Shown in pieces: positions 48,281-64,000 of a DNA stretch of 64,000 nucleotides. The position numbers and the translations under genes were made by a program. The stretch lies in contig JAUVXW010000005.1 of the NCBI GenBank assembly GCA_030603385.1, forward strand, positions 92,568 through 156,567, given 5' to 3'. Origin of the DNA: Promethearchaeota archaeon. Lineage in GTDB: Archaea; Asgardarchaeota; Lokiarchaeia; Sigyniarchaeales; SOKP01. Under the pieces are notes generated by a model that saw only the letters and a program-made list of their open reading frames with translations, had not been told where the DNA came from and ran no database searches. The first letter of the stretch is position 1. Every line of letters begins with the position of its first letter.

Positions 48281-49612
48281 TTAATCTTCTATTAATGCGG
48301 TTTTACCACTACCCCATACTCCAAGTGCGATCCCTAATTCTTTGTGTTCTTTAGCAACTTGTTTTACATTTTTTCCTTGCATAACAGCATCAATTGCTTG
48401 TCTAAATGCTTTAGCGCCAGATGTTGGACCATCAGGATGACTATGAATACCACCACCACTACCAATTAAAATATCATTACCGGCTTCTTTCATACATTTT
48501 TCAACCATTCCAGGTGTAATTCCTCCACTGGGCATTGGTAATGTTGGTTTGATATGTTGAAATGGAAATCGAAGTGCTTTAAGATTCTGCTCATATCTCT
48601 CATCTAATATCTCGGCTTTTCCATAAGGTGCAGGAATTACAACTGTATCAGCACCACAAATTCGTGGTAATTTTGCAAAAGTTAGCATACTAGTCATTCC
48701 TGTCCATATCCCCCCAAAGTAAGTCCCTCCAAAATCCATATGCCCTAAAATAGGAACTTTTATTGATGGATCTTCGGCAATTTGTCTTAGAGCTTCAAAT
48801 CCAGTAGTTAAGTAATTTATCATTAAGGCATTGGCTCCTAATTCTATCATCTTATCGGCGTATTCGAACATTTCCGGGAATTTAGTGGTAATATTTATAG
48901 TGTATAATGTTTTTTCTCCTTTTTCTGAGTCTGCTCTATCAACAGCTTCCATAACTTTTACAATTCTTTCTTCTAATCTATTAAAAGAAGGGTTTGATAT
49001 TAATTCATCATCTTTTACCACATCACAACCACCAACGGCAGCTTTGTATACTAGATCTGCCGCAACATCTGCTGTATGCCCTGTACAAGGCTTTACCATA
49101 TTGTTTAAAAGAGGACGTTCTGGTACATTCATTAATTTTCGTAAACCATCGATCCCAAACTTAGGTCCTTTAAAATCCTCTAACCATGCTTTAGGGAAAG
49201 CCAGATCTACTAATTTTAATCCGTGTGTAATGCTAATATTTCCAATAACTGTTGTAAAAAGCATTGGTATTCCCATTCCTTTAATATTTATAATAGGAAA
49301 CCCGATTTGTACAAAATAAATTCGTTCCTTAATATCTTTAGGCACCACATATTCTATGTGAGGCAATTCATATACTCCAAGCACTCTTGCTACATGATGT
49401 TTTCTAACCTCTTCTGTCTCAGCAGGAACTCGAACCCATGTTCCTGTTGATTGTTCGATTGCCACGAATCTAGAGAGATAGTTAACATTTTGTCCCTTAG
49501 GGCGTTTTATAATATAACTTGCAATAATATATTTTTCTAAATCTATACCGTCTAAGCCAATGGCTTCTGGAGTATCTAAATATTTTTCACAGCTAGGAAA
49601 GTTTTTATCCAT
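48281..49612 (-). CDS. RuBisCO-like protein (form IV-like large subunit)
   Basis: A 443-residue member of the RuBisCO large-subunit superfamily. The carbamylation motif is intact (GGCDVVKDDELI, with Lys, Asp and Glu), as are the loop-6 Lys (PYGKAEILDE), the Ser in MPSGGITPGM and the GGG phosphate site (IGSGGGIHSHPDG). But the KPKLG motif is KPCTGHT, losing the second lysine, and the usual HxR and HSGT positions read GHMDFGG and VIPAPYG, so the RuBP-binding Arg and His are missing. Carboxylation is doubtful; an enolase- or isomerase-type reaction is more likely. Confidence 0.8.
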   Translation of the reverse strand: MDKNFPSCEKYLDTPEAIGLDGIDLEKYIIASYIIKRPKGQNVNYLSRFVAIEQSTGTWVRVPAETEEVRKHHVARVLGVYELPHIEYVVPKDIKERIYFVQIGFPIINIKGMGIPMLFTTVIGNISITHGLKLVDLAFPKAWLEDFKGPKFGIDGLRKLMNVPERPLLNNMVKPCTGHTADVAADLVYKAAVGGCDVVKDDELISNPSFNRLEERIVKVMEAVDRADSEKGEKTLYTINITTKFPEMFEYADKMIELGANALMINYLTTGFEALRQIAEDPSIKVPILGHMDFGGTYFGGIWTGMTSMLTFAKLPRICGADTVVIPAPYGKAEILDERYEQNLKALRFPFQHIKPTLPMPSGGITPGMVEKCMKEAGNDILIGSGGGIHSHPDGPTSGAKAFRQAIDAVMQGKNVKQVAKEHKELGIALGVWGSGKTALIED

Positions 49613-49726: not shown

Positions 49727-50842
49727 TTAATCTTTCACTTTAGCTTCTGCTTTTTGCGCTGCTTTTAAATTTGTATACGTGTTTTCAAGTACAGTCAAGT
49801 ATTCAATTAAAACTTGATCAGCTTTTGATTTTTGTTCATATACTGTTTTAATAACATTCATTAGATATTTTGGGAACATTAAATCTAGATGAAAATCAGA
49901 TAGAAGCGCATAATATTCATTGCCTCGTTCATCTTGGAAGACTTGTATCAATTGAGTATCCCAAAGCATCTTTAATACATCATCGAGGTCTTCTACCCCT
50001 TTCTTTCTAAGTTTCTCCAGGTCATTCTTAGTAACAACGGCAGTTCTTAATAATCTTATTGTTTCATAAACTTGTGGATTGGTAAGAACATCTAATATTC
50101 TGAGATTATCTCCTTCTGAGGGTTGATAATTTTGAAAATATCTTCGAACATCAGTTTTATAATTTTCAACAAGTTGAGAAGGTAAACCTCGATCTGCTGG
50201 GTCTCTTAAAATAATCGCTGGTGGCACGCGCATAAGGACAATATCTTTTATCAAGAAAATTAGTTCAGAAGGCATACCTTTTACTGATGCTTCTTTGACT
50301 ATCTCACGTTTAATGAGTTCCATTAAAACACCTTCGACATCAACAAATCCTTGTTTATATCTGTCTTTTAGCCAAATCATCAGTTCTGATTTAGAGACTA
50401 CACCTTCATCCCTTAAACGCTTAATTATCATACGTTTTATTTCATCTTGATATGTAAGCGCAAGTCGTTGCTCAGTACTTAAAGTGGGATACACTGATAA
50501 TCGTCGGAATAGCGTAGGGATCATTTGGAGAAATGCATCATCTTCCAAATTTGTTAGTATAATTCTAGAAATATCTATTAATCCTTCTTCGTATGCATCT
50601 GGATCATCATCAAGATTCAAGAGTAGAAGAACATAGAAGTTTTTCTCTGGTCCAGTGTAGTATGATGCAATATTTAATGAACCAATCATTAAACTAATCA
50701 TCCCTGATTCTCCGCTATATTCATGGGTGCTATAAACTTGCATTAGTGTTTTCTCAGTTAATACAATTTCTTCTGGGTATTTAGATAATATTTCAGTACC
50801 TGCCCTGTCATCCCATCTCATTATAACTAATCCAATTGGCAT
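49727..50842 (-). CDS. Longin-like plus winged-helix cytosolic protein, copy A
   Basis: A 371-residue protein. Residues about 1-105 (MPIGLVIMRWDDRAGTEIL to the DISRIIL helix) fit a longin/roadblock-type alpha-beta domain. Residues about 120-310 contain helix-turn-helix-like units (EGVVSKSELMIWLKDRYKQG, then TKNDLEKLRKKGVEDLDD). The order longin then winged helices recalls the Nprl2/Nprl3 family, by architecture only. The ATG directly abuts the TAA of the surface-protein gene, and AAAGGAGGTGT just upstream is a strong ribosome site, so the two are translationally coupled. A close paralogue lies at 56.4 kb. Confidence 0.65.
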   Translation of the reverse strand: MPIGLVIMRWDDRAGTEILSKYPEEIVLTEKTLMQVYSTHEYSGESGMISLMIGSLNIASYYTGPEKNFYVLLLLNLDDDPDAYEEGLIDISRIILTNLEDDAFLQMIPTLFRRLSVYPTLSTEQRLALTYQDEIKRMIIKRLRDEGVVSKSELMIWLKDRYKQGFVDVEGVLMELIKREIVKEASVKGMPSELIFLIKDIVLMRVPPAIILRDPADRGLPSQLVENYKTDVRRYFQNYQPSEGDNLRILDVLTNPQVYETIRLLRTAVVTKNDLEKLRKKGVEDLDDVLKMLWDTQLIQVFQDERGNEYYALLSDFHLDLMFPKYLMNVIKTVYEQKSKADQVLIEYLTVLENTYTNLKAAQKAEAKVKD

Positions 50843-53800
50843 TTATTCTACACCTCCTTTAAGATCTTTAAATTCCCCTGTCGTTTCGGGTAAAGTTTTC
50901 TTTTTCTTACCCTCTAAACCTAATACTTTCTGCAAGGATAACCCAAGCATTTCCCATCTGTCTCCTAATCTTTTTACCATGTATTCTTCCTTTGAAGGAT
51001 ACAGTAGTGAATCTGAGATAGACTTTTTACCTTTGATGTCTTTCTTCATTTTCTTCGCTTTTTTAACGAATGTAGGTATTCTAGCTTGTTGTACTGTCCG
51101 ATAAATAGCTAAACTTGCAGTCACAGCGACAATAGCACCGATAATCATTAAGAGGTAGAAGGTTGGGAATCCGAATGTTTCATGCATGTTAACAACAATT
51201 GTTATTGGCTTTGTTAAAGTAGAGAAATATTGCATTTCAATAGTAAGTGTTGCAGTAAATGTTGCAGGAATAAAGAACGCATCAGCGATTTTAGGAAAAT
51301 CTACTAAGGTATATGTTCCATCTCCATTATCTTCAAAATCATAAGTAGTTTCTTTAAAGGTGATAGATACATTTGCTCCGATAACTGGTACTGAACTATT
51401 TAGATCCGATAGTATCAATGTAAATCGTAATGACTCTCCTGATTCTACTTCAGTTTTTTTTGAAATGGTTCCTTTAAATTCATCTGGCCATTCAATATGA
51501 AAATTTCTTTTTTGAATGGTTAAAGAAATTATAGCAATTCGATGTTCATAATTTAGCTTATCTAAAGTCACTATTATTGAATATTCCCCATCAAGACGAG
51601 TCCTTGTATCAAGATCTAAGACAAATTTATTACCTACTGTTTCAACTAATTCTCCAGTTTCCGTCGTGCCTGGAATGGGCTCTCCATTTTCAAGTTTTTG
51701 TAAAAGATAACTTTGCTCATCTAAATTAGAAATTGGATTTGTACTAAATACGTCTGTATATTCAAATGTAAAAATAATTTCTTCAAAAATAAGAATATCT
51801 TCAGAAATATACAGTAACCCAGAAGATTCATTTATCTTTGTTGGTCTTGAGATAATATTAACATATATGAAACTTTCAATTTTCGAATAGTTTTCATAGC
51901 TTGCAGTTATATCAAATCTATATTTCCCAACATTTGTAGCGAGGGAAGTATCTATACCAAAGGTATAATATTCCGCTATCGGACCAGGTTCTAGCGAACC
52001 TGAACCATAATCCCACTCGTAAGTGAATGTGTCAGGTGCTAAAGCTGTGTTTGTTATATTGTCAAAAAATCTTGCTGATATATTGACGAAGTACCCATAA
52101 TAATCTGAAATTTCATAATCGAGTCCTATATTTTTAGGTAATTCATTAGGCATTGAAGTGTAATTGTGTAATGTTAGACCTGTAGGTTTAGCGTATAAAG
52201 TAAATCCAAAATATACTACCTCAGGATCATTCCAAAATGCTTTATACCCAGAAACCAATACGTAATAGAATTCAGAAACATCTCCGGCAGAAAGAAAATT
52301 TGAGTTTATTGTTATGGTAAAGTTACCTGTCGGCCCTGATGCATGAGTCATTGGCTGCTCAAAAATTGTTTGTCCAAATTTCGTATATACTGTCCAGGTT
52401 GCTGATGTTACAGAGGCATTTCGGTACCAATCACCGTACCAGTTTTCTCCCCCATCATCTGAAGTTTCATAAAAAACCCAGAAAGACATATTTTCACCCC
52501 AATTTACGGTAGAATCCCCATCATATGATGTAAAATTAGCTATTCTATCCGTAAAGTTCAAGTCTAATTGAAATACAAGAGAAGATGCCTGATCTAATGA
52601 ATAGTTATACCATGTAGTATAACCTGGAGGTTTGGGTTTATCTGAAGTGTTGACTATAAAGGTTTGTTGTAAACTAACAATCCATAACGTAAAGTTATAA
52701 GTCTGTCCGGTTTTATACCAAAATCCAAATTCTTTAGTCAGATCTCCATATGCGTATCCCGTAGTATCTGTTTCCAAATCAACTATACCCGTTCCCATTG
52801 TATCTTCAACTTTTATAGTAACTCCTGTTACAGTTTCCATACCTGTGCTGTCTATTACTAGTATATCTAATTTAGACATAGCTACTGTTATATTTTCCTG
52901 ATAGATCCCTTGACCTAGACGATTAATAACACTTTCATTTAAAGGAGTAGGATTTTGTACTATGTAGTCTTCATTATCATAGAATAATGTATAATTATAA
53001 CTTGATTGGTTTATCCAACGAAAAGTTGCTGCCCCATTGGAATCTAAGATAAGTTTTTCTAGTACTTCGCTGCTCCCAGCACTAACATTTATGTACCCAT
53101 AATTGAATGGATCTCCATCCAAATCATCAACTTCAAAATCTATTGTCCATAAGTCAGCAATTACAGTAGTGTCCACAAATAAGCCTTTAAATTCTAATTC
53201 ACCGCCAACTGCACTACTATCATATACAACATTTTCATATAAACCAGAAATTAATGTATAATTGACAGTTATATTATATTTACCAAATATAACTCTACTA
53301 AAAACAGCTTCCCCATTTGAATCAGTTAGAATAGAGGTGATACCACTCATATTTAATATTTGAGTACCGTTCCATAACGCTACTTCTGCGCCAGGAACTA
53401 GTCTATCATCAACATCTTTAACAGTGATTGTTACTGTAGCAGCGCGCTCAACTTCACCAAGTAAATCTATGTCTAATGGATAAGAATTTGCTAACCACTC
53501 TATTTCGTTATCTGAAAGTGCATAATCAAAATACCTAACATCATCTAAAGCCCCCTCAAAATAATGATTATTTCTTGCACCATTCCAAGTAGTTGCTTCA
53601 GAACCATCTCCTATAAAACCAAATCTAGTCTGACCGACATCTCCAACTGGTATTAAATTCCAAGTGTTCACTTGTGCATCCAATGAACCATCCACATAAA
53701 CTTTTTTATCAAACTCCAATGAATAATCGAACGTTACTACGCAATGATGCCAAGCAGCAGGAATATCTTCATCAATATTTGTACTCCCAGTAAAATCATT

Positions 53801-54718
53801 AGTACCCCCATTATATGAAGTATCGAATTCAACATGACCATCAGTTGCTCGATATCCTGGAGTTCCAGCAGCGAAGGTAAAATACTCAGATCTATCAAAG
53901 TCAAGTATGGACCATCCCCCCAGATTTAATCCTATTTTCACCCAAGCTGAAGCTGTGAATTGATAAATAGGTCCTGTTAGAGTAGTAGCTTGATAAGCAG
54001 CATCAGGAGAATTAAATGACATATTTAATGCAATAAATTCATTTCCACCATCAAAATTAAGTGCATAATCTCCTTGAACTCCCTGAATATAATTGTTATC
54101 ATCCATATTTACAAAAGTTCCGTGATATTTATCGCCTATCGAATCATATGCCATAGTTCCAGAACCTTCTTCGAATTCCCATCTAGCAATGCCATCTGGG
54201 CAGTTATCCATGTAATAACTTGTAGCAGGGCCCACAGTACTGTTTCCATAATAGAGAAATGTGTCATATTCTATAGATCCTGCGGTAGAGTTTGACTCAA
54301 ACCAGACAGTTGCCAGATCTGTGCTTGAAAAATCTTTTTTTATGTAATAATTTCTTAAAATTCCATTTTCCACAATTCTAATGTCATCTAAATCATCTTG
54401 CAAATGCCCAGAATCATATAAGTTTTTCCAATTAAATTGAATTTTAATTATATTATCAGTTAGATTATAATCTCCCGGATTCGTAATGTTAATGCATTGT
54501 CTCCATTGATAAGATACATTCCACCAAGAATCTTCACCAATCCCATTACTTAAAACTGGTAGTATAAATCCTCCTTTGTCAGTATCCATTTCATCATTAA
54601 TATTATTCACTGAATTACTAGGAATTAATGGAATAACAAGCAAAACTGAACTTACCGTTAGGATCAACAAGAAACATATTGATATCCTTTGTTTAAACTT
54701 ATTATGTCTCGTTATCAT
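50843..54718 (-). CDS. Giant surface protein with DUF2341/LamG/Ig-like domains and one C-terminal membrane helix, copy A
   Basis: A 1291-residue exported protein. A signal peptide (about 12-35, ISICFLLILTVSSVLLVIP) is followed by a DUF2341-like domain (about 60-160, WWNVSYQWRQCINITNPGDY), a LamG/concanavalin-like domain (about 170-405, ASAWVKIGLNLGGWSILDFD), then CNA-B-like and Ig-like beta domains (for example ITVKDVDDRLVPGAEVALWN). About residue 1185 a single membrane helix (FYLLMIIGAIVAVTASLAIY) leads to a basic cytosolic tail of about 85 residues shared with copy B. Many N-x-S/T sites suggest glycosylation. It is coupled to the longin-like gene downstream. Confidence 0.75.
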   Translation of the reverse strand: MITRHNKFKQRISICFLLILTVSSVLLVIPLIPSNSVNNINDEMDTDKGGFILPVLSNGIGEDSWWNVSYQWRQCINITNPGDYNLTDNIIKIQFNWKNLYDSGHLQDDLDDIRIVENGILRNYYIKKDFSSTDLATVWFESNSTAGSIEYDTFLYYGNSTVGPATSYYMDNCPDGIARWEFEEGSGTMAYDSIGDKYHGTFVNMDDNNYIQGVQGDYALNFDGGNEFIALNMSFNSPDAAYQATTLTGPIYQFTASAWVKIGLNLGGWSILDFDRSEYFTFAAGTPGYRATDGHVEFDTSYNGGTNDFTGSTNIDEDIPAAWHHCVVTFDYSLEFDKKVYVDGSLDAQVNTWNLIPVGDVGQTRFGFIGDGSEATTWNGARNNHYFEGALDDVRYFDYALSDNEIEWLANSYPLDIDLLGEVERAATVTITVKDVDDRLVPGAEVALWNGTQILNMSGITSILTDSNGEAVFSRVIFGKYNITVNYTLISGLYENVVYDSSAVGGELEFKGLFVDTTVIADLWTIDFEVDDLDGDPFNYGYINVSAGSSEVLEKLILDSNGAATFRWINQSSYNYTLFYDNEDYIVQNPTPLNESVINRLGQGIYQENITVAMSKLDILVIDSTGMETVTGVTIKVEDTMGTGIVDLETDTTGYAYGDLTKEFGFWYKTGQTYNFTLWIVSLQQTFIVNTSDKPKPPGYTTWYNYSLDQASSLVFQLDLNFTDRIANFTSYDGDSTVNWGENMSFWVFYETSDDGGENWYGDWYRNASVTSATWTVYTKFGQTIFEQPMTHASGPTGNFTITINSNFLSAGDVSEFYYVLVSGYKAFWNDPEVVYFGFTLYAKPTGLTLHNYTSMPNELPKNIGLDYEISDYYGYFVNISARFFDNITNTALAPDTFTYEWDYGSGSLEPGPIAEYYTFGIDTSLATNVGKYRFDITASYENYSKIESFIYVNIISRPTKINESSGLLYISEDILIFEEIIFTFEYTDVFSTNPISNLDEQSYLLQKLENGEPIPGTTETGELVETVGNKFVLDLDTRTRLDGEYSIIVTLDKLNYEHRIAIISLTIQKRNFHIEWPDEFKGTISKKTEVESGESLRFTLILSDLNSSVPVIGANVSITFKETTYDFEDNGDGTYTLVDFPKIADAFFIPATFTATLTIEMQYFSTLTKPITIVVNMHETFGFPTFYLLMIIGAIVAVTASLAIYRTVQQARIPTFVKKAKKMKKDIKGKKSISDSLLYPSKEEYMVKRLGDRWEMLGLSLQKVLGLEGKKKKTLPETTGEFKDLKGGVE

Positions 54719-55313
54719 TTTTATTTCATTCGTTTTTAATTTAAATTTAGTTATATTATTGATTTTTTAAATAAAGGTTTTCAATAATAATACTAATTTT
54801 TGTATTTAATTTTTTATCTTTGTGTCAATAATTGATTTTGCATATCAATCTTAGAATTGTTATTTTCTCTTTAGCATTTTTATGCATTAGTGGACAAAAT
54901 ATTCTATAATTACTATTAAATTTTATATAACAATATTAAGATTTTTGCTGCAAAAACGTTTAATTTCGCTTTAATCATCAAAAATTTGGATAAAAAACCT
55001 CAGATTCTTCTATTTTTAAAAAATTCCTGAATGTAAAATTAATCGTTTTAAATGAAATAAACCAACTCTGTTATTAAGTATGAAGAATCTAAGTTTTGAT
55101 ATAACTATCAAAAAGAATTTATAATGTATTTTTACTTTGAATAGTTTAACTACTTCTACCCCTATATCACACGTTTTCTAATTCCTAAAGATTTAAATAT
55201 TTTAATTTAGATTGAAGATTCAAGAAATAATTTCAAAATTTTATGTTTTCTAAATAAATGGAAAATTAGCTTTTCTTTAGACTCATGATTTCATAATATA
55301 GAGGTACTAAAAC
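54719..55313. other. Long AT-rich divergent intergenic region
   Basis: About 595 bases between the surface-protein gene (minus) and the GTPase gene (plus). No ORF, tRNA or clear repeat is seen. It should contain the promoters of both, and its length is unusual for this gene-dense window. Confidence 0.4.
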
Positions 55314-56348
55314 ATGTTAAGACAAGTCTACATTTTGAAAGACGATACAATATTGTACAACAAGAATTTCGGAAAATCAATGTCAATAGAAGATTTTCAA
55401 AAACTTTGTCAAGAGATTGTTGAAGAAGCTGAAAAAGGAACAAACTTAGACAGCTACGACTTTTTCAAATATAAAATCGTATATTCACGAGTGAAAGATG
55501 AAGGATTGATGTTCATATTCATTACTGATATAAACGATGAAATAAGGAGGTCTAAGGATGAGTTGGAAAAATTAAAAAAAGAATTTTTAGAAACGTTTGG
55601 AGATAGCTTAGAGAATTTGGATCCCGCACTTATGGAGATATTAGACCCTATAATAGATACAACACATAGAAATCTTAAAACAAAAATATCTTTAGTGGGA
55701 TTTTCAGGGGTAGGGAAAACAACAACAACTAAATTAATCTGTGCTGATGAAATTCCTTCAGTTCATATTCCTACTATCACTGGGAAAATCTCAACTGTTA
55801 AAATAGGAAAACTCTATTTCCATCTATGGGATTTTGCGGGACAAGAACAATTTAGTTATTTATGGAATGATTTTATTCTTGGTAGTGATGCTGTACTTAT
55901 ACTAACAGATTCCACATTAGAAAATGTAGAAAAAAGTAGATTTTTTATTGAGTTAGTGAAAGAACATGCTCCTTATGCTCATACCGCTATAATTGGGAAT
56001 AAACAAGATTTACCTGAGGCCTTAAGCATTGAAAAAATTCAAGAGATTTTAGGTTTAAAAACTTATTCAATGGTTGCAATAGATTCAGAAAACCGCGTTA
56101 AAATGATACAGATTGTTGCAGATATTTTAGAAATTAGTACTGATGCATCACCATTGTTAAAACCCTTATTTGAAAGAGATCAGCTAATTAATAAGGCAAG
56201 AACTTGTTTGGAAAATGGTGATATAGCCCAAACTGCGGATATTTTCGAAAAAATATCAGATTTATGTCTTGAATTAGGAGATGATTTCCTTTACAAGGAG
56301 TTTTATGAGAAAGCAAAAAAATTGAAGGGTTATTTAACAAATCTATAG
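55314..56348 (+). CDS. Longin-like domain fused to Arf/Ras-like small GTPase
   Basis: A 344-residue protein. Residues about 1-85 (LRQVYILKDDTILYNKNF, then DEGLMFIFITDIND) fit a longin-like domain. Residues about 115-285 form a small GTPase: G1 LVGFSGVGKTTTTK, G3 WDFAGQEQFSYLW and G4 IGNKQD; the SAK-like G5 is weak (MVAIDSEN). A C-terminal helical part (about 290-344) resembles a TPR hairpin. The WDFAGQE form is Arf-like. It lies between two surface/longin gene pairs on the opposite strand and may switch their signalling or trafficking. Confidence 0.82.
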   Translation: MLRQVYILKDDTILYNKNFGKSMSIEDFQKLCQEIVEEAEKGTNLDSYDFFKYKIVYSRVKDEGLMFIFITDINDEIRRSKDELEKLKKEFLETFGDSLENLDPALMEILDPIIDTTHRNLKTKISLVGFSGVGKTTTTKLICADEIPSVHIPTITGKISTVKIGKLYFHLWDFAGQEQFSYLWNDFILGSDAVLILTDSTLENVEKSRFFIELVKEHAPYAHTAIIGNKQDLPEALSIEKIQEILGLKTYSMVAIDSENRVKMIQIVADILEISTDASPLLKPLFERDQLINKARTCLENGDIAQTADIFEKISDLCLELGDDFLYKEFYEKAKKLKGYLTNL

Positions 56349-56431
56349 TATAAAATTCTTTTATACGACTAGAATCTCTCCATAAATTAAGACTAATAAA
56401 AAAAAATAATAAATAAATATTAAAAATAGAT

Positions 56432-57541
56432 TTAATCTTCTTTTTCTTCTACTTGAATTTTAGTTGGTCGGTAGGTATCATCAAGTACATTTAGATATTC
56501 AATTAGAACTCCATTTGATTTTGATTTTACTCCATATTGATAAATTATTGTTTTTAACATGTATTTAGGGTATATCAAAGAATTATGAAAGTCTGTAAGT
56601 AACGCGTAATATTCGTTTCCTTTAGCATCCTGAAAAACATGTATCATCTGATTATCCCATAATTTCTTTAATCCGCTATCGATGTCGTCAACTCCTTTTT
56701 TTCTAAGTTTCTCCAAGACATTTTTTGTGACTATTGAGATTCTAAGTAATTTCAAAATTTCATAAACTTGAGGATCCGCTATTACATCCTCTAGAATTTT
56801 AAGATTGTCGTCATCTGATGGGCGATATTTTTGGAAGAATTTCCTAACTGTTACATTGTATTCCTCTGCAAATTTTTCAGGCAGTCCTCGTTCAGAAGGA
56901 TTTTTAAGTAAGTTAATTGGCGGCCTTCGAATCATAAATAAATCATTTATAAGAAAGATTAATTCTGATGGCATACCTTTAACGGATGCTTCTTTTATTA
57001 TTTCTTTTTTAATTAATTCCATAAGAATAGCATCCACATCGAAAAAACCCTCTCTATATTGGTCTTTTAACCAGATTTTCAATTCTGATTTTGTTATTAC
57101 GCCTTCTTCTCTTAACCTGTTTATAATTAACCTATTCACATTATCAAGGTATGTAATAGCTAAACTTTGCTCTTCATTTAAATGAGGATATGTTGATAAC
57201 CTTTGGAATAAGAATGGGATCATTTCTAAATACACTTTATCTTCATAGTTTTGGAAAATCACGCGTGAAATATCAGATAATCCCCCTTCATATGTATCAG
57301 CATCTTCATCCAAATTCAAGAGCAGAATAATATATAGAGGTTTTTCTCTTCCAGTGTAATATGAAGCAATATTTAATGGCCCTACTAGTAAACTAATCAT
57401 TCCCGGTTCCCCTGTATATTCATGTGCTGCATATATTTGCATTAATGTTTCCTCACTTATCACAAGTTCATCAGGATATTTTGCAAGAATCTCTGTGCTT
57501 ACTTTAATATCCCATCTCATTATTACTAATCCAATTGGCAT
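56432..57541 (-). CDS. Longin-like plus winged-helix cytosolic protein, copy B
   Basis: A 369-residue paralogue of the protein at 49.7 kb, alike along its whole length (MPIGLVIMRWDIKVSTEIL, then KEASVKGMPSELIFLI in both). Its ATG overlaps the stop of the surface-protein gene by one base (TAATG), with AAGGAGGTGA just upstream. Conservation of the coupling in both copies argues that the two products work together, perhaps through the cytosolic tail of the surface protein. Confidence 0.65.
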   Translation of the reverse strand: MPIGLVIMRWDIKVSTEILAKYPDELVISEETLMQIYAAHEYTGEPGMISLLVGPLNIASYYTGREKPLYIILLLNLDEDADTYEGGLSDISRVIFQNYEDKVYLEMIPFLFQRLSTYPHLNEEQSLAITYLDNVNRLIINRLREEGVITKSELKIWLKDQYREGFFDVDAILMELIKKEIIKEASVKGMPSELIFLINDLFMIRRPPINLLKNPSERGLPEKFAEEYNVTVRKFFQKYRPSDDDNLKILEDVIADPQVYEILKLLRISIVTKNVLEKLRKKGVDDIDSGLKKLWDNQMIHVFQDAKGNEYYALLTDFHNSLIYPKYMLKTIIYQYGVKSKSNGVLIEYLNVLDDTYRPTKIQVEEKED

Positions 57542-60500
57542 TAGACCCTTTCACCTCCTTCTTTACTAATCTTGTCTTTTATTGGTGATTTCTTGGTTTT
57601 TAAATCTTGTATTCCTAATGCTTCATCGATTGAAAGACCGAGTTCCTTCCAGTCATTTCCAAATAGTTTTGCTGTCATTTCTTCTTTTGTCGGAATTGAA
57701 AGTGTCTCTGAGATTTTCTTCTTTGATTTTATGTAGCCTTTGATTTTCCTGATTTTCTTAACATGTTTAGGAATTCTTGCTTGTTGTATGACTCTATATC
57801 CAACAAGACTTCCTACTACACCAATTACTGATGCAGTAATCAGAATGAAGTAGAATGCTGGCATTCCGGGAAATATTTCCTCCATCTCCACTGTAATAGT
57901 AATTGTAATTTCCTGCTTAGTGAAGTTAGCAGCTTCAATGTAAATTTTACCTACATATGTTCTTGCGGTAATAAATGTGTCAATATGACGTGTTTCTAAT
58001 GTTAAAATATATGTACCATTTACATTTAGATCCGGATTAAAATCATGATCAATACCTCTGAAATTGAGTTTAACTATTGCGTTTACTAATTCCACATCTC
58101 TAGTTTCATCCCATAAACTGATCTCAAAATCAATATCAGTTCCTTGTTCTATCTTGATTTGGTTGTTGCTTCCAAGTTGAGGAGTGTCAATTGTAGGAAC
58201 AAACGTTCTCAAGTTTATCACTAAATTAATAAAGGCGTTTTTTTGAACATAGTTCTCTTTTTTTAGTGTAACATACAAGAAATAGTAACCAACTGGTTTT
58301 AGTTCCGTTCTAAAATCTAGAGTATAAGTGTTATCTAAATTTTGATTTAATATTCCAGAACCGAAACTACCAGCAACTTTCGTTCCATTTTCATATAATT
58401 CCTCCCAAACAAAGGTAGCTATATTTAAATCACCAATAGTGTCATTCTTGATAAAATCTCGATAGTCAAAATCAAAATATTCTGGAACTTGAACATATAT
58501 AGGTGAGCTAATATAGACTAAATCTGCTATTTCGTTATTTAGTGTTGTTCTTCTTTCCAAAATATTAAGATAAACCAGAAAATCGGATTGCGTTTTGTAA
58601 TTTTCGAGAGACGCTTTAATACTAATTATCTTTAAACCAGAGCTCTGTGCATCGGCGGTATTAATTGTGAATGTATAATAATCACTATTTTGAGAATCAG
58701 AAAAGAAATTAACTGGATTAAGACCGATCCATTCATAACTTAGAAGTGCACTAGGTATGGGAGTTCCGGACTCATCAATTGAATATCTAACAGTGATATT
58801 TATAATATCATCATAATAGGCAGAATATGTTTTTGCTGGTAATTCCGCATATGAATCATAATCATGTGCGCTAATTGTAGTTGGTATAGCTTTTATTTTT
58901 ATCAGAAAGTTATGAGTACTTGGTTCGGGGTATCCTGGATATAGCCCTTCAATAGCAACCGTGTAGAATTTCGCGTCTCCTCCGGCTGAAAAACTACTTG
59001 AATCAACAGTTTTAGTAAAATTTCCATCCCCCGTGCCTGGTCCTAATTCTTCTGAATATTGAATTATATCTTCTCCTGCTTCCCTAATATATAACATACA
59101 ACTTGCGCTAGGATCTGTTATAGGATTCCAAGTATCCCCATTATCTTCAGTTATATAAAAACTTATTGAAAAGCTCATATCTTGACCCCATTGAATCTCT
59201 GCTGTACCAGAAGCGTTAAAGAATGAAGTAACATAACTGGTAATATTAGGTGTGAATATTTTAAAAATGAGATTAAATTCAATTGAAGATCCTCCATATA
59301 GTGTATAATTGTACCACTTAACACCATCACTGTCTGTAGGATGCCATTGATAAGGAGTTATATCAGTTACATTGAAATCTACATTAGTAACGTTGAGAGA
59401 ATTTATTGAAATATTGTATGATCGATCTTTTAGAAACCAAAATGGTAAATCGGTAATTGTTGTATAAGCATATCCGTCTCTATCTAAACGTGAAGTTAGG
59501 TTAACGATTGGTTGCTGGGTTTTGTTATCTAACACCTTTATTAAAGCAGGATAGGGAACTTTTACACCACTTTCATCTTTTATTACTCGTATATTTAATC
59601 TAGCTAAATGAGTTCGGTTGAATATGTACCAAGTTTCAGTTGTTTTTATATCAATGAGACCATCACATCGAGTAAAATTGATTCCATTAATTTTGAGTAA
59701 AAAACCATAAATTTCGTATTGTTCACTCTCCAACTTAGCATTTTCTATACTAGGAATGTCTAATTCGATGATATCACTATCTTCACCAGGACTATAACCG
59801 TCTTCAAAATAAATTAGATTTTCATTACCAATACCAGTTGAATTATCTTTATCAACATAATATACAGATATATTCGTAAGCTGATTAACCATGTTAGTCA
59901 AAGAAATATTGATTTTAATTATTTTCTTATTTCCAAATTCGGTTCTTGAGCCATTGGTATAAAATAGTTCACTGACTGAATAACTATTTGCTCCTTGCGG
60001 TAAAGTGTTAGTATTATTTACCCATATTGTATGATCCCTGAACTTTTCTCCATCTCTTGCATAAAGACTTCTACTAATATAAGATTCGTTCAATAGAAAT
60101 CGATCACCTACATAATCCTTATTTTCATAATAAATTCTGAAGTAATAATCAGAGGTATTCAACCAACGAAAAGTTGCCTTTCCATTTTGATCCAATATCA
60201 ACGTGTCTAATAAGTCACCACCAAAACTTTCATTAATTTCAATATATCCTAAATTCAAAGGTATTCCATCCCAATCCACAACTTCGAAATCGATAGTCCA
60301 AAGATTTGAAGTTAATGTAATAGTATAACTTGTTCCATTTAATTCCACCATTTGGTGTCCTACTACCGCTTCTCTACTCCCTAATGTATAATTTGCAGTT
60401 ATATTATATTCTCCATTAAGTAATTGAGAAAAACTTATTGATCCATTAAATATTGAAGTGAATCCTGAAGCTACAACAGTGCTTGAAGTTTCATCAATTA

Positions 60501-61953
60501 TAATAATATGAGCATTAGGGACAATATTACCATCAACATCTCTTGCATTAATGGTAATATCCGATTTTCTTGCTTGAATTTCATTGATTGAAGTTGATAA
60601 TGTATAATTAAATTTAAGATCGTCCACTTGGAAAAATGCTGATTTCTCTTTTTTCAATGTATTTGACTCATCACCCCATACTCCAAGTTCAAAAAAGATT
60701 TCTTTCCCTTCATAAGTAGATATATCAAAATTAAGATAACCAGTTAAATCTCCGTCAATACCGCCTCCTGCTTCATCCGAGTAAGTATCTACTACCCCTC
60801 CATGCCCAGGATAATCTATTAATTCTGTCTCAACATCCCATTTTTTTGCTGGATTATTATAATAGCAATATCCATCATAAGCTTCAAGATAATTATCATA
60901 ATCAATCTGAATTATATCATTATCATCATGATTATCAGGATCTATATCATAAACAGTATCTGAGCCATTTAGAAGCCTAATAAAATACCCATCCTTATTT
61001 ATTGGTCCCATATTTTTCGGTCTTTCGAATCTATGTGTTCGAATATTACGATATACTATTAATGAAATATCACCCCCTTCTACAATTGGAACTTTGAATG
61101 GATACGAAAATAGCGTACCGGCATAATCACTAACAAGAGAATCTGGTAAAGTGTGATCTTCAGCACCAAATTTATAAGAATATGTACCCCTAGCGACCCT
61201 ATGACCCCCATCCAAATTGTCTTCTAATTTATTAACAAAATATTGATAACTGGTTGCTGAACTATTATTAGGACTAGGGTTAGGATTGTCATTGTACATT
61301 ATGGTGTCAACGGGATTGTGGGAGAAATACCACCCAAATGGTTCAAATTTATCACTTGAATCAATGTCTAACTCAAAATCACCATTTTTTACCCATCCAA
61401 AACTTTCAGTTGGTTGATCAGATTCGGCATTTGTAGCCGTTGGATTCCCAAAATATAAATAAGTATCAGTTTCGGTGGTGCTAGCAGACATATTCGTATC
61501 AAAAAATACTGTAGCATAATTTGTGGTAGGATAGTCTTTTACGATATAATAATTACGCAAAATTCCGCTTCCCCCTGCCATCTCGACAATTCTAATGTCA
61601 TCCAAATCAGATTGCATTTTACCTTCAGAAACCAAATCTGCATAATTAAAAGACACATTTACAGCATAATTTTTGATATTATACGGATATGGATTAGTAA
61701 CATTAATTAACATTCTATATTCATATGAAGAATCCCACCATGGAGCTTTTCCAAATATACTTAAAACAGGATTATTGAATGCTTCACCATTATTAAAATC
61801 ATCAATTATACTGTTTTTATCGTTTAAATTCTCTCCATCAGCCTTAAAATTAGAAAGAATCGCTGAATTAATTGCCGAAAAGCTTGTCAGCATTACTACT
61901 GAAAATATAATTAAAACTTTTAACCGAAAATTAAGCCTTTTTTTAGAAATCAT
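57541..61953 (-). CDS. Giant surface protein with DUF2341 and Ig-like domains and one C-terminal membrane helix, copy B
   Basis: A 1470-residue exported protein. A signal peptide (about 8-32, FRLKVLIIFSVVMLTSFSAI) precedes a DUF2341-like domain (WWDSSYEYRMLINVTNPYPY), a carbohydrate-binding-like beta domain instead of the LamG of copy A, CNA-B-like units (ITINARDVDGNIVPNAHIII) and Ig-like domains. The membrane helix (about 1365-1388, FYFILITASVIGVVGSLVGY) and the tail motif RIPKHVKKIRKIKGYIKSKK match copy A (RIPTFVKKAKKMKKDIKGKK). The outer part has diverged while the tail is kept, as expected if a cytosolic partner reads the tail. Confidence 0.75.
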   Translation of the reverse strand: MISKKRLNFRLKVLIIFSVVMLTSFSAINSAILSNFKADGENLNDKNSIIDDFNNGEAFNNPVLSIFGKAPWWDSSYEYRMLINVTNPYPYNIKNYAVNVSFNYADLVSEGKMQSDLDDIRIVEMAGGSGILRNYYIVKDYPTTNYATVFFDTNMSASTTETDTYLYFGNPTATNAESDQPTESFGWVKNGDFELDIDSSDKFEPFGWYFSHNPVDTIMYNDNPNPSPNNSSATSYQYFVNKLEDNLDGGHRVARGTYSYKFGAEDHTLPDSLVSDYAGTLFSYPFKVPIVEGGDISLIVYRNIRTHRFERPKNMGPINKDGYFIRLLNGSDTVYDIDPDNHDDNDIIQIDYDNYLEAYDGYCYYNNPAKKWDVETELIDYPGHGGVVDTYSDEAGGGIDGDLTGYLNFDISTYEGKEIFFELGVWGDESNTLKKEKSAFFQVDDLKFNYTLSTSINEIQARKSDITINARDVDGNIVPNAHIIIIDETSSTVVASGFTSIFNGSISFSQLLNGEYNITANYTLGSREAVVGHQMVELNGTSYTITLTSNLWTIDFEVVDWDGIPLNLGYIEINESFGGDLLDTLILDQNGKATFRWLNTSDYYFRIYYENKDYVGDRFLLNESYISRSLYARDGEKFRDHTIWVNNTNTLPQGANSYSVSELFYTNGSRTEFGNKKIIKINISLTNMVNQLTNISVYYVDKDNSTGIGNENLIYFEDGYSPGEDSDIIELDIPSIENAKLESEQYEIYGFLLKINGINFTRCDGLIDIKTTETWYIFNRTHLARLNIRVIKDESGVKVPYPALIKVLDNKTQQPIVNLTSRLDRDGYAYTTITDLPFWFLKDRSYNISINSLNVTNVDFNVTDITPYQWHPTDSDGVKWYNYTLYGGSSIEFNLIFKIFTPNITSYVTSFFNASGTAEIQWGQDMSFSISFYITEDNGDTWNPITDPSASCMLYIREAGEDIIQYSEELGPGTGDGNFTKTVDSSSFSAGGDAKFYTVAIEGLYPGYPEPSTHNFLIKIKAIPTTISAHDYDSYAELPAKTYSAYYDDIINITVRYSIDESGTPIPSALLSYEWIGLNPVNFFSDSQNSDYYTFTINTADAQSSGLKIISIKASLENYKTQSDFLVYLNILERRTTLNNEIADLVYISSPIYVQVPEYFDFDYRDFIKNDTIGDLNIATFVWEELYENGTKVAGSFGSGILNQNLDNTYTLDFRTELKPVGYYFLYVTLKKENYVQKNAFINLVINLRTFVPTIDTPQLGSNNQIKIEQGTDIDFEISLWDETRDVELVNAIVKLNFRGIDHDFNPDLNVNGTYILTLETRHIDTFITARTYVGKIYIEAANFTKQEITITITVEMEEIFPGMPAFYFILITASVIGVVGSLVGYRVIQQARIPKHVKKIRKIKGYIKSKKKISETLSIPTKEEMTAKLFGNDWKELGLSIDEALGIQDLKTKKSPIKDKISKEGGERV

Positions 61954-62094: not shown

Positions 62095-62736
62095 CTAAAA
62101 ATTACGATTCTTATTTAACAAAAGAAAGATTTTTCGCTTCTTTTGCCTATTCGGGTTATCTATGATGAAATTTCCCGAAAAATCTGTGTGTTTCACAATT
62201 ATTTTGCCAGTGTTGTCCATAATTTCTTTATTTTTGGGGTAAAATTGTATAACTACTCGTCCATTAGGCTTTAAAATCTTATAAAAGGATATTGAGAGAT
62301 TTTTTAGCATTGAATACATCATTTTATCTTTCAAATCTCGAAAAATCCATTGTAATGCAGAAATAGAAATAATAGCATCAAATGTATTTGGTTTAAAAGG
62401 TGGAAAACACATATCTGCCGTAATCGGATTTAATTCTTTTATTTCATAATAATACAAAAATTCTGGAATAATATCAAGTGCCACTATCCTATATCCTATT
62501 TCTTTTAAATATGTTGCGGCAAATCCAGGCCCACTACCAGCGTCTAAGATTAGGGCGTCCTTTTTTTTTATATCTAAAAGTTCTAAAGCTCTTATTGTTA
62601 TTTTTTCTTGAATTTTCATCATATTTTTGGAGGTTGCATACTGATTTAAGATGTCTCCTCTAAAATAATCTGAAACCTTTCCATATTCTTCTTCTGGTCT
62701 CTTCTTCTTTACATTAAAATTATATTCGGTGTTCAA
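62095..62736 (-). CDS. Bud23-like (WBSCR22-type) rRNA methyltransferase
   Basis: A 213-residue class I methyltransferase. The N-terminus RPEEEYGKVSDYFRG and YATSKNMMKIQEKITIRALE, the SAM motif LILDAGSGPGFAATYL, ISISALQWIFRDLKDK, VVIQFYPKN and the C-terminal NPNRQKKRKIFLLL follow the order in eukaryotic Bud23, which makes m7G in the small-subunit rRNA. It lies next to ribosomal protein eS25 and a tRNA gene. The longer C-terminal extension of Bud23 is absent. Confidence 0.75.
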   Translation of the reverse strand: MNTEYNFNVKKKRPEEEYGKVSDYFRGDILNQYATSKNMMKIQEKITIRALELLDIKKKDALILDAGSGPGFAATYLKEIGYRIVALDIIPEFLYYYEIKELNPITADMCFPPFKPNTFDAIISISALQWIFRDLKDKMMYSMLKNLSISFYKILKPNGRVVIQFYPKNKEIMDNTGKIIVKHTDFSGNFIIDNPNRQKKRKIFLLLNKNRNF

Positions 62737-62890
62737 ATTAATTATTGTTTAATCAGTTAGTTTCATTATTAAATTAGATAGAACCTATTAAGTTTTAAAT
62801 AATAAACCAAAAATTTTATTTAATTCTAAATATTTATAATTTCAATCTATTTTAATTTTTGATTCTATGTTTTAGTAAACTTGACCTATT

Positions 62891-63193
62891 ATGTCTGAAA
62901 AAGAAGAAAAACTTGTAGTGAGGAAGGCAACCATAAGTCTTAGGAGAAAATACGGAAGAACTAAGCAAATTACTATTGTTGAACGAGATGCTTTTGTCCC
63001 AAAAAAACTTGAGAAAGAAATTAAGGAATCAATTCTAAAGAAAAAATCAATTTTAGCAACTGACATTGCATTAAAATTCGATATAAGAGTTTCAACAGCA
63101 AAATTATTGTTAAAGATATATGAAGAAGAAGGATTAATCAAACTTCTAGATCCTACTTTAAAACTTAAAATTTATATTCCCACTTCTCAATAA
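62891..63193 (+). CDS. rps25e: Ribosomal protein eS25
   Basis: A 100-residue basic protein: a lysine/arginine-rich N-terminus and a winged-helix core ILATDIALKFDIRVSTAKLL followed by YEEEGLIKLLDP, the pattern of eS25 in the small ribosomal subunit, found in archaea and eukaryotes only. It is divergent from the Bud23-like gene. A generic winged-helix DNA-binding protein is the alternative but is less likely given the composition and length. Confidence 0.72.
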   Translation: MSEKEEKLVVRKATISLRRKYGRTKQITIVERDAFVPKKLEKEIKESILKKKSILATDIALKFDIRVSTAKLLLKIYEEEGLIKLLDPTLKLKIYIPTSQ

Positions 63194-63516: not shown

Positions 63517-64000
63517 TTATTGAATAATCTGTAATATCAGGTTTTCCATTTGAGGTTTAGCAGCTTCAATCTTATCTAAAAGCGTTACTGTACTTTCTAA
63601 GTCCTTTTCATCTTCTTCTATGATAAACAACAGATAAAAATCTAGATTTCCAAATTTAAGCACTTCAATAATACCTGAAAATCTTTCTCCATTGTCAAAC
63701 TTATCAGAAAATTCATATAGCATCCGATTTTCTGCAATAATACGTTTTTGCAGGTTTAAATAAATTTCATATATCTTTAATTTCTGAGTTAATTGTAAAT
63801 GTGGACGATAAAACTCTCCTAATGTTATTCCTTTAGAATCAAATAGAGATATTAAAATTGCATTATAATTCTTACTGATTTCTGTAAATAAATTAGATAC
63901 CATTTCCATTTTTTCAAATAACATTGATAAGCCACTAGAAAAAGCATCCATTACCGATTTAATATCGAAGATCGTTGTTTCAAAGAAAAATATATCAAAG
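63517..64000 (-). CDS. Roadblock/longin-like protein, cut by window end
   Basis: An ATG ending at 63951 gives 144 residues, but the frame stays open to the window edge, so the gene probably starts outside. The pattern NAILISLFDSKGITLGEFY, then GNLDFYLLFIIEEDE and a final long helix fits a roadblock or longin-type domain. Such proteins bind small GTPases; one is encoded at 55.3 kb. Tentative. Confidence 0.45.
   Translation of the reverse strand, partial: FDIFFFETTIFDIKSVMDAFSSGLSMLFEKMEMVSNLFTEISKNYNAILISLFDSKGITLGEFYRPHLQLTQKLKIYEIYLNLQKRIIAENRMLYEFSDKFDNGERFSGIIEVLKFGNLDFYLLFIIEEDEKDLESTVTLLDKIEAAKPQMENLILQIIQ

What the first reader, a model, noticed from the sequence alone, without database searches (positions are those of the whole stretch)
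49727..61953. Duplicated surface-protein/longin-winged-helix gene pair around a longin-GTPase gene: candidate surface-to-cytosol system
Seen: two minus-strand pairs (50843-54718 with 49727-50842, and 57541-61953 with 56432-57541), each a 1300-1470 residue signal-peptide protein with one C-terminal membrane helix, translationally coupled to a cytosolic longin plus winged-helix protein. The stop-start junctions abut or overlap, with GGAGGTG ribosome sites in both. The ectodomains differ (LamG in copy A, another beta domain in copy B), but the cytosolic tails and longin proteins are conserved. A longin-like/Arf-like GTPase gene sits between the pairs. Known: longin and roadblock domains bind or regulate small GTPases. 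Inference: the tails recruit the longin protein, which acts with the GTPase, giving an Asgard receptor or membrane-organising module.
Basis: partly seen in the sequence, partly recalled or inferred. Interest (0 to 1): 0.78.

Follow-up and report, generated by a model that had tools for sequence, protein, structure and literature searches.

The report
Archaeal surface receptors wired to GTPases
In many Asgard archaea, the closest known relatives of complex cells, genes for large, predicted single-span surface proteins sit directly beside, or are fused in one reading frame to, genes for a protein predicted to carry the same kind of domain found in regulators of membrane-traffic GTPases in our cells, and about a third of the compared copies have such a GTPase gene nearby, so these are likely to be sensors that would pass outside signals to a eukaryote-like switch.

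Summary
Two minus-strand pairs (surface protein plus longin–winged-helix protein, "LW") flank a longin–Arf-like GTPase gene. The pair is not local: LW has relatives in 136 of 195 Asgard genomes searched. Of 155 distinct LW genes in fetched loci, 91 directly follow a surface gene with the same cytosolic tail, 17 (19 after recheck) are fused with the tail in one frame, 3 precede such a gene, and the rest have none. Fused rows form one clade (SH-aLRT 99). Of 84 strong tail hits, 82 are with an LW; 2 end at or near contig ends. AlphaFold models give a longin fold plus winged helices. Longin–Arf GTPase genes lie within 8 kb of 41 of 118 LW genes (about 1.3 pairs expected) and within 1 kb in 10 of 14 families sampled, once as a three-gene surface–LW–GTPase run. 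The GTPase's N-terminal domain matches AP-2 sigma (E 1.4e-5). Best reading: surface sensor, tail, longin regulator, Arf-like GTPase; physical contacts and GTPase regulation are inferred. Longin–GTPase fusions and an "NPRL2-like longin" label are in print; the surface coupling was not seen in the papers listed.

The parts
50843..54718 (-). Surface protein A, 1291 aa: predicted signal peptide, LamG-type head, Ig-like repeats, one C-terminal membrane helix, cytosolic tail
   Evidence: 30 N-glycosylation sequons outside, 0 in the tail
53501..53971 (-). LamG / concanavalin A-like domain of copy A (residues 250-406)
   Evidence: PF13385 E 7.7e-13
51104..51160 (-). C-terminal membrane helix of surface protein A (residues 1187-1205)
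   Evidence: hydropathy
50846..51103 (-). Conserved cytosolic tail of surface protein A, ending near GG from the in-frame Shine-Dalgarno
50851..50857 (-). GGAGGTG ribosome site of LWA, inside the tail's codons; stop 50843-50845 abuts the ATG at 50842 in the same frame
49727..50842 (-). LWA: longin (about residues 1-115) plus two predicted winged helices (about 123-206 and 243-322)
55314..56348 (+). Longin-Arf-like GTPase, 344 aa
55314..55661 (+). N-terminal longin domain of the GTPase; family profile matches AP-2 sigma
   Evidence: E 1.4e-5 over profile positions 1-99
55668..56069 (+). Arf-like G domain (residues 119-252): GFSGVGKT, WDFAGQ, GNKQD
   Evidence: PF00025 E 1.6e-19, 70.5 bits (cut-off 22.3)
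57541..61953 (-). Surface protein B, 1470 aa: predicted signal peptide, DUF2341-like region and other beta domains, no LamG match, one C-terminal membrane helix, cytosolic tail
   Evidence: 35 sequons outside, 0 in the tail
57802..57858 (-). C-terminal membrane helix of surface protein B (residues 1366-1384)
   Evidence: hydropathy
57544..57801 (-). Conserved cytosolic tail of surface protein B
57552..57558 (-). GGAGGTG ribosome site of LWB inside the tail's codons; TAATG overlap of one base
56432..57541 (-). LWB: longin plus winged helices, 369 aa, 61% identical to LWA

Best explanation
These are likely receptor modules in which a surface protein with a variable, predicted extracellular head and one predicted membrane helix carries a conserved cytosolic tail that would hold a longin-winged-helix protein (LW) at the inner face of the membrane, where LW is predicted to act on a neighbouring longin-Arf-like GTPase. 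Shown by sequence: the tail protein and LW are encoded as abutting genes with the ribosome site of LW inside the tail's codons, or as one continuous chain; strong tails are found with LW; LW genes lie near longin-Arf GTPase genes far more often than chance, in several changed gene orders in different Asgard families. Predicted: the longin fold, the two winged helices, the topology. Inferred: contact with an outside ligand changes the tail-LW platform; LW pairs its longin domain with the longin domain of the GTPase and so recruits or regulates it (exchange factor, GAP or effector); the GTPase then organises membrane or cytoskeleton locally. The two window pairs would be paralogous inputs, with different heads, to the one GTPase between them.
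Against: No contact between tail and LW, or LW and GTPase, was measured; the prediction tool returned no inter-domain error, so the tail-LW interface is untested. 77 of 118 LW genes have no longin-GTPase within 8 kb; families f2 (0 of 13 LW), f8 (0 of 7), f9 (0 of 3) and f22 (0 of 1) have none with its N-terminal longin within 1 kb, and the single f4 case (L222) groups with f17 in the tree, so its contig may be misbinned. Of 30 weaker tail hits, 24 are not within 300 nt of a listed LW (LW lists were truncated) and 9 of 11 fetched examples stand alone. The tail match in the three-gene run L206 is weak (19 bits). Three LW genes of one clade follow a methyltransferase gene instead of a surface gene. 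LW and GTPase longins show no clear profile relation (hhalign probability 7.9). LW-tail distance correlation 0.87 is confounded by common descent, and the chance model treats paralogous LW genes around one GTPase as separate.
Confidence: 0.62

Rival explanations
1. Membrane-held transcription regulator: the surface protein holds a winged-helix protein that is released or altered by an outside signal and binds DNA, and the longin part only serves dimerisation or tethering.
Against: In the fused form the winged helices cannot leave the membrane without cleavage. LWA and LWB are acidic overall (pI about 5); wing 2 is acidic in both copies and wing 1 basic only in copy A. Linkage is with a GTPase gene. 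Tandem winged helices also serve as protein-protein modules, as in ESCRT-II (first Foldseek hit of the winged-helix part, but only E 0.01).
Confidence: 0.13
2. Structural surface-anchor system: the tail and LW anchor adhesins or cell-surface spikes to the membrane skeleton, with no regulated signalling; the GTPase is linked only because it sorts or inserts them.
For: Heads are adhesion-like (LamG, pentaxin-like, GH43_C2-like, FG-GAP propeller). Lokiarchaea show complex surface proteins in tomograms (PMC9834061, passages seen). 77 of 118 LW genes have no longin-GTPase within 8 kb.
Against: LW carries a fold that in eukaryotes recurs in GTPase-regulator complexes; LW-GTPase neighbours without a detected tail gene beside LW occur in f5, f7, f10, f12, f15, f17, f18 and one f4 locus.
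Confidence: 0.17
3. Chance linkage: LW and the GTPase are unrelated neighbours kept together by vertical descent.
For: Within the window's genus the arrangement is inherited as a block.
Against: 41 LW genes within 8 kb against 1.34 pairs expected; order and orientation differ between families yet adjacency persists (GTPase after LW in f10, f11, f12, f17, f18 and the f4 locus; before LW in f15 and f5; mostly opposite strand in f1, both states in f7).
Confidence: 0.06

Closest known systems
Asgard 'NPRL2-like longin domain' proteins (label in PMC9834061, figure legend passage seen)
   Same: A longin class said to be enriched in 'Ca. L. ossiferum'; LW's longin matches chains of GATOR1 complexes in structure searches
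   Different: The passage gives a label only; whether LW is that group was not checkable here, and pairing or fusion with surface proteins is not mentioned in the passages seen
NPRL2/NPRL3 of GATOR1 (SEA complex Npr2/Npr3)
   Same: N-terminal longin followed by a winged-helix region, acting on a small GTPase at a membrane (recalled); Foldseek rows from GATOR1 and SEA entries at E 1.9e-4 to 4.4e-3 over 321-474 columns (that the matched chains are NPRL2/NPRL3 is recalled, the call names only the complexes)
   Different: The aligned core is essentially the longin domain (116-122 residues in GATOR1/SEA rows); the rows shown for the winged-helix part alone do not hold them; no receptor in cis (recalled)
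Asgard longin-GTPase and roadblock-GTPase fusions (PMC10933270, passages seen)
   Same: The window GTPase has this architecture: longin then Arf-like G domain
   Different: [quoted passage not shown] here one longin-GTPase family is repeatedly near LW
Clathrin adaptor small chains (AP sigma) and Arf
   Same: GTPase N-terminal domain profile matches AP-2 sigma (E 1.4e-5), fused to an Arf-like G domain
   Different: Longin and GTPase are one chain; partner adaptor chains were not looked for
MglA/MglB polarity switch of Myxococcus (PMC9481161, search listing only)
   Same: Small GTPase with a roadblock-superfamily regulator in a prokaryote
   Different: No surface receptor in cis or as coupled gene (recalled)
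Animal plexins (recalled)
   Same: One membrane helix, large beta-rich ectodomain, cytosolic small-GTPase regulator in the same chain, like the fused form
   Different: Unrelated domains; GTPase-directed activity of LW untested

Membership tests
Longin-domain proteins (LW) | Longin fold at the N-terminus | tested here: met
   [not shown]
Longin-domain proteins (LW) | Match to a longin sequence model in Pfam | tested here: inconclusive
   18 members scanned; no longin family among the 25 of 30 families shown at E 1 or better
NPRL2/NPRL3 (GATOR1) | Longin followed by winged-helix region in this order (recalled) | tested here: met
   (architecture only)
NPRL2/NPRL3 (GATOR1) | Structural match beyond the longin domain | tested here: inconclusive
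   Foldseek spans 321-474 columns (E 1.9e-4 to 4.4e-3, rmsd 17-25 A) but VIA aligns 116-122 residues, and the rows shown for the winged-helix part alone do not hold them
NPRL2/NPRL3 (GATOR1) | Sequence match to NPR2/NPR3 models or chains | tested here: inconclusive
   Not among the 25 of 30 Pfam families shown for 18 members; not among the 5 PDB profile hits to E 10
NPRL2/NPRL3 (GATOR1) | GAP activity on a Rag-type GTPase, complex with a DEPDC5-type subunit (recalled) | not testable with these tools
   needs biochemistry
Arf-family GTPase (window 55314-56348) | Arf-type G domain with intact nucleotide motifs | tested here: met
   PF00025 70.5 bits against a cut-off of 22.3; GFSGVGKT, WDFAGQ, GNKQD in the window protein
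Arf-family GTPase (window 55314-56348) | Short N-terminal amphipathic, Gly2-myristoylated helix (recalled) | tested here: not met
   protein begins MLRQVYIL, leading into a 116-residue longin domain
AP small chain (sigma) for the GTPase N-terminus | Sequence-profile homology across the domain | tested here: met
   four AP-2 sigma sequences at E 1.4e-5 to 2.7e-5, positions 1-99 or 1-102 of 116; Clat_adaptor_s in 5 of 24 members, best 0.0065, below Pfam significance
AP small chain (sigma) for the GTPase N-terminus | Member of a heterotetrameric adaptor | not tested
   no search for partner chains was made
Single-pass surface receptor (type I) | Signal peptide, glycosylated ectodomain, one membrane helix, cytosolic tail | tested here: met
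   by prediction only: hydropathy and sequon distribution

The most novel reading that the evidence does not exclude
A primordial cargo-receptor and Arf-adaptor machine: Asgard surface receptors carry a tail read by a longin platform and coupled to an Arf-like GTPase whose own N-terminus is a sigma-adaptin homologue, so that outside contact drives Arf-controlled membrane remodelling. This would be a living relative of the ancestor of eukaryotic Arf-adaptor cargo selection and of longin GTPase regulators such as NPRL2/3, and the first transmembrane receptor-to-Arf system in a prokaryote.
Probability: 0.22. Interest if true: 0.95.

Novelty: new variant of a known kind. Interest (0 to 1): 0.82.

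Why it matters
How the many eukaryote-like GTPases and longin proteins of Asgard archaea are used, and what controls them, is open; a 2024 study says that GTPase genes of MK-D1 generally do not share operons with their possible regulators, which makes pairing them difficult (PMC10933270, passages). Here genome context does pair them: a specific longin regulator, a specific longin–Arf GTPase and a specific receptor tail. That turns a vague question into testable pairs, ties the cell surface to the internal membrane-traffic toolkit, and gives a concrete candidate for how receptor-controlled Arf-type switches began.

Tried and rejected
1. Sequence-only identification of LW failed: for LWA no Pfam match better than 0.09 and no PDB sequence match better than 0.7; a profile of 18 members gives 5 PDB hits to E 10, the best two winged-helix regulators.

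2. Is LW an NPRL2/3 homologue? Considered and not adopted: similarity rests on the longin domain; GATOR1 rows are absent from those shown for the winged-helix part.

3. Common origin of the two longin domains (LW and GTPase) by profile comparison: probability 7.9, E 0.0044, not supported.

4. DNA-binding reading: kept as a rival only (charges).

5. A tail–LW interface from the fused model: the tool gives no inter-domain error and no coordinates, so no claim is made. A LW–GTPase complex could not be modelled (single chains only). Four LW frames of 574-672 aa were read for a GTPase (L063, L071, L072, L073); their extensions are charged and helical by eye, with no GTPase.

6. Orphan tails: 11 of the weak relatives and 3 strong ones were fetched. 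Of the 11 weak ones 9 have neither LW nor a strong longin-GTPase hit in the fetched stretch (L256 has a weak GTPase-profile hit, 24 bits); L258 has an LW-like gene (97 bits) and L263 a longin-GTPase about 2.1 kb away. So the tail family is wider than the LW pairing.

7. Rows dropped before counts: one search used 118 LW rows listed (those with E up to 2.6e-40; weaker listed and unlisted rows left out) and the 116 GTPase rows (E 1e-40 or better, at most 36 candidates scored per genome). One search dropped exact duplicates and LW scores under 200 bits; its rule put L166 and L168 under 'none', corrected. One search counts fetched loci only, several f1 loci having been fetched because one search had shown a GTPase nearby, so its f1 numbers are biased; one search does not depend on which loci were fetched.
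Full report
WHAT IS THERE. Pair A: surface protein 50843-54718(-), 1291 aa, and LWA 49727-50842(-), 371 aa. Pair B: surface protein 57541-61953(-), 1470 aa, and LWB 56432-57541(-), 369 aa. Between them lies the GTPase gene 55314-56348(+), head-to-head with pair A and tail-to-tail with pair B. Junction A is GGAGGTG TAGAA TAA ATG, in the same frame across the stop; junction B is GGAGGTG ... TAATG with one shared base. The glycines near the end of each tail are the ribosome site of LW read in frame, so the end of the receptor and the start of LW are built into each other. Each surface protein has a signal-like helix, a long ectodomain and one late membrane helix by hydropathy; sequons are about 2.5 per 100 residues outside and absent from the tails. 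Copy A has a LamG domain (E 7.7e-13); both have DUF2341 and carboxypeptidase-regulatory matches below Pfam's cut-offs.

WHERE IT COMES FROM. The 70 closest loci in named genomes are Lokiarchaeota/Lokiarchaeia assemblies by their titles. LW has relatives in 58 of 58 genomes sampled from genus to phylum (E 1e-3 or better) and in 136 of 195 genomes, 41 of 57 genera, in a phylum-wide sample (E 1e-10 or better). In a search with distant members, those of the 120 listed proteins (of 388 found) that bear an organism name are Asgard, including Jordarchaeales and Freyarchaeum, or a marine sediment metagenome.

THE PAIR IS A UNIT. In fetched loci, 155 distinct LW genes were classified: 91 follow a tail-bearing surface gene, 17 are fused with it, 3 precede one (-68, -8 and +2 nt), 44 have none. 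Of the 44, two do carry the tail in frame (L166 whole, in a short frame; L168 partly, cut by the contig), and 8, L168 among them, lie within 300 nt of the upstream end of the fetched stretch. Of the 91, 44 overlap by one base and 19 abut; 81 lie between -1 and +4 nt; 84 have a ribosome-site-like sequence just upstream. The uncut fused proteins run signal helix, ectodomain, membrane helix, tail, longin, winged helices in one chain of 2,087 to 2,669 residues, among them one on the record titled chromosome CP070831.1 and one of 2,090 residues in the window's own genome (contig C53). In one genome (G030) four such genes of about 2,650 codons follow each other. In a tree of 150 LW domains (quick method) the 16 fused rows form one clade with L166 and L168 (SH-aLRT 99), among the paired LW: the fusion arose from the pair, probably once. 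Conversely, of 84 strong tail hits (E 1e-10 or better) in 195 genomes, 76 are within 300 nt of an LW, 3 at 330-435 nt, 2 belong to surface genes directly following LW, 1 is followed by an LW start cut by the contig end (L260), and 2 are undecided at contig ends (L261, with 164 nt left and no LW start at the junction; L262, running to the end). Of 30 weaker tail hits, 6 are within 300 nt of a listed LW and 24 are not; 9 of 11 fetched examples have no LW or strong longin-GTPase hit nearby. Heads vary while the tail is constant: LamG, pentaxin-like, GH43_C2-like and FG-GAP propeller matches.

THE GTPASE. It has an Arf-type G domain (70.5 bits against a cut-off of 22.3) with intact motifs, and a 116-residue N-terminal domain. 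A profile of 24 such domains matches AP-2 sigma, the small chain of the clathrin adaptor, at E 1.4e-5 over positions 1-99, so it is a longin domain of the adaptin type. Longin–GTPase fusions in Asgard archaea are known (PMC10933270, passages), and clathrin-adaptor small-chain domains have been detected in Asgard archaea (PMC10307638, passages).

LINKAGE OF LW AND GTPASE. Comparing 118 LW places with 116 longin-GTPase places, 41 LW genes (and 29 GTPases) in 22 genomes lie within 8 kb of a partner, against 1.34 pairs expected for random placement; 77 LW genes do not. Paralogues around one GTPase are not independent. In fetched loci, a GTPase with its N-terminal longin lies within 1 kb of an LW in 10 of 14 families: f1, f4, f5, f7, f10, f11, f12, f15, f17, f18 (nine if the f4 contig, whose LW groups with f17, is misbinned), but not f2 (0 of 13 LW), f8 (0 of 7), f9 (0 of 3), f22 (0 of 1). 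Sixteen of the 44 LW genes classed without a tail partner have it on the same strand within 300 nt. Orientation and order differ between families. In L206 (family f11) surface gene, LW and GTPase follow each other on one strand with -4 and +6 nt between them, though its tail match is weak (19 bits). Loci of fused receptors also carry related GTPases (G000 C53, G001, G004, G006, G009, G030). So LW–GTPase is the wider association, and the strong tail is confined to the window's own class in the sample (families f1, f2, f7). The direction of this history is an inference from distribution.

HOW IT PROBABLY WORKS. Inference, in steps: the head meets a ligand, a neighbouring cell or glycan; the tail holds LW at the inner membrane; LW's longin pairs with another longin, most simply that of the GTPase, making the kind of platform that longin and roadblock domains make for small GTPases (PMC10933270, passages); the GTPase, which lacks Arf's own N-terminal membrane anchor (it starts MLRQVYIL; the anchor is recalled knowledge), is thereby recruited or switched. 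Different heads with paralogous tails would give several inputs. Rivals, with weights, are a membrane-held transcription regulator and a purely structural anchor.

WHAT IS KNOWN AND WHAT IS NEW. The label 'NPRL2-like longin domain' for a family enriched in an Asgard archaeon is in print (PMC9834061, figure legend passage; the only paper found for that phrase with Asgard); LW may be that group. One paper holds both Asgard and GATOR1 (listing only) and it concerns Myxococcus. Searches for Asgard with longin, winged helix, GTPase, Arf, adaptin, NPRL2, transmembrane and extracellular domain listed 18 of 19, 20 of 25, 20 of 231, 15 of 58 and 12 of 75 papers; none of the titles and abstract openings shown describes the surface–longin pairing. 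Three papers were looked into by passages only. Subscription papers and bioRxiv preprints are largely not held. I therefore call it a new variant of a known kind: longin-type GTPase control, but built onto a surface receptor in cis or in a coupled gene.

Noticed in passing
window 63517-63951(-) and beyond the window end: The 144-aa ORF at the window edge looks like the C-terminal part of a second GTPase gene cut by the contig end: relatives of about 310 aa beginning with a GLD.AGKTS motif (L085, L127; a shorter frame in L108) sit beside the S25-like and methyltransferase genes upstream of LW.
   Followed up: partly
window 62095-63193: A methyltransferase gene (62095-62736) and a small S25-like winged-helix gene (62891-63193, PF03297 E 4e-6, just below cut-off) seem, by eye, to keep their place beside surface or LW genes in other Lokiarchaeia (L260, L262, L127).
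   Followed up: partly
L127:4282-5385, L108:4352-5455, L085:4520-5632: One clade of LW genes follows the methyltransferase directly: the surface partner seems lost while LW stays intact.
   Followed up: partly
L046 and L047 (G030 C9, about 438.7-471.7 kb): Four consecutive fused receptor-LW genes of about 2,650 codons each, with a GTPase gene beyond the first.
   Followed up: partly
L039:11999-13954 (own genome, contig C53); L050:13613-15550: Divergent to the fused receptor is a protein of about 650 aa with two GTPase domains: a longin-Arf-like one with altered motif (DFTGE or DFNGQ) and, after a roadblock-like stretch judged by eye, a Rab-like one (DIGGQ).
   Followed up: no
L059:4245-4625, L060:6730-7119, L061:4799-5188, L041:8313-8693: Stand-alone LW-type longin proteins of 126-129 aa; those in G054 lie downstream of the longin-GTPase on the same strand.
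   Followed up: no
L063, L071, L072, L073: LW proteins of 574-672 aa with C-terminal charged, helical (by eye) extensions and no detected tail gene beside them.
   Followed up: no
L076:9187-16272: A paired surface protein of 2361 aa has FG-GAP (propeller) repeats, E 1.9e-13.
   Followed up: no
window 48281-49612(-): 443-aa ORF that looks like a RuBisCO-like large subunit by eye; no search was made.
   Followed up: no
L250-L257: Other Asgard families, and some Lokiarchaeia, have large surface proteins with a weakly related tail but no LW in the fetched stretch.
   Followed up: partly
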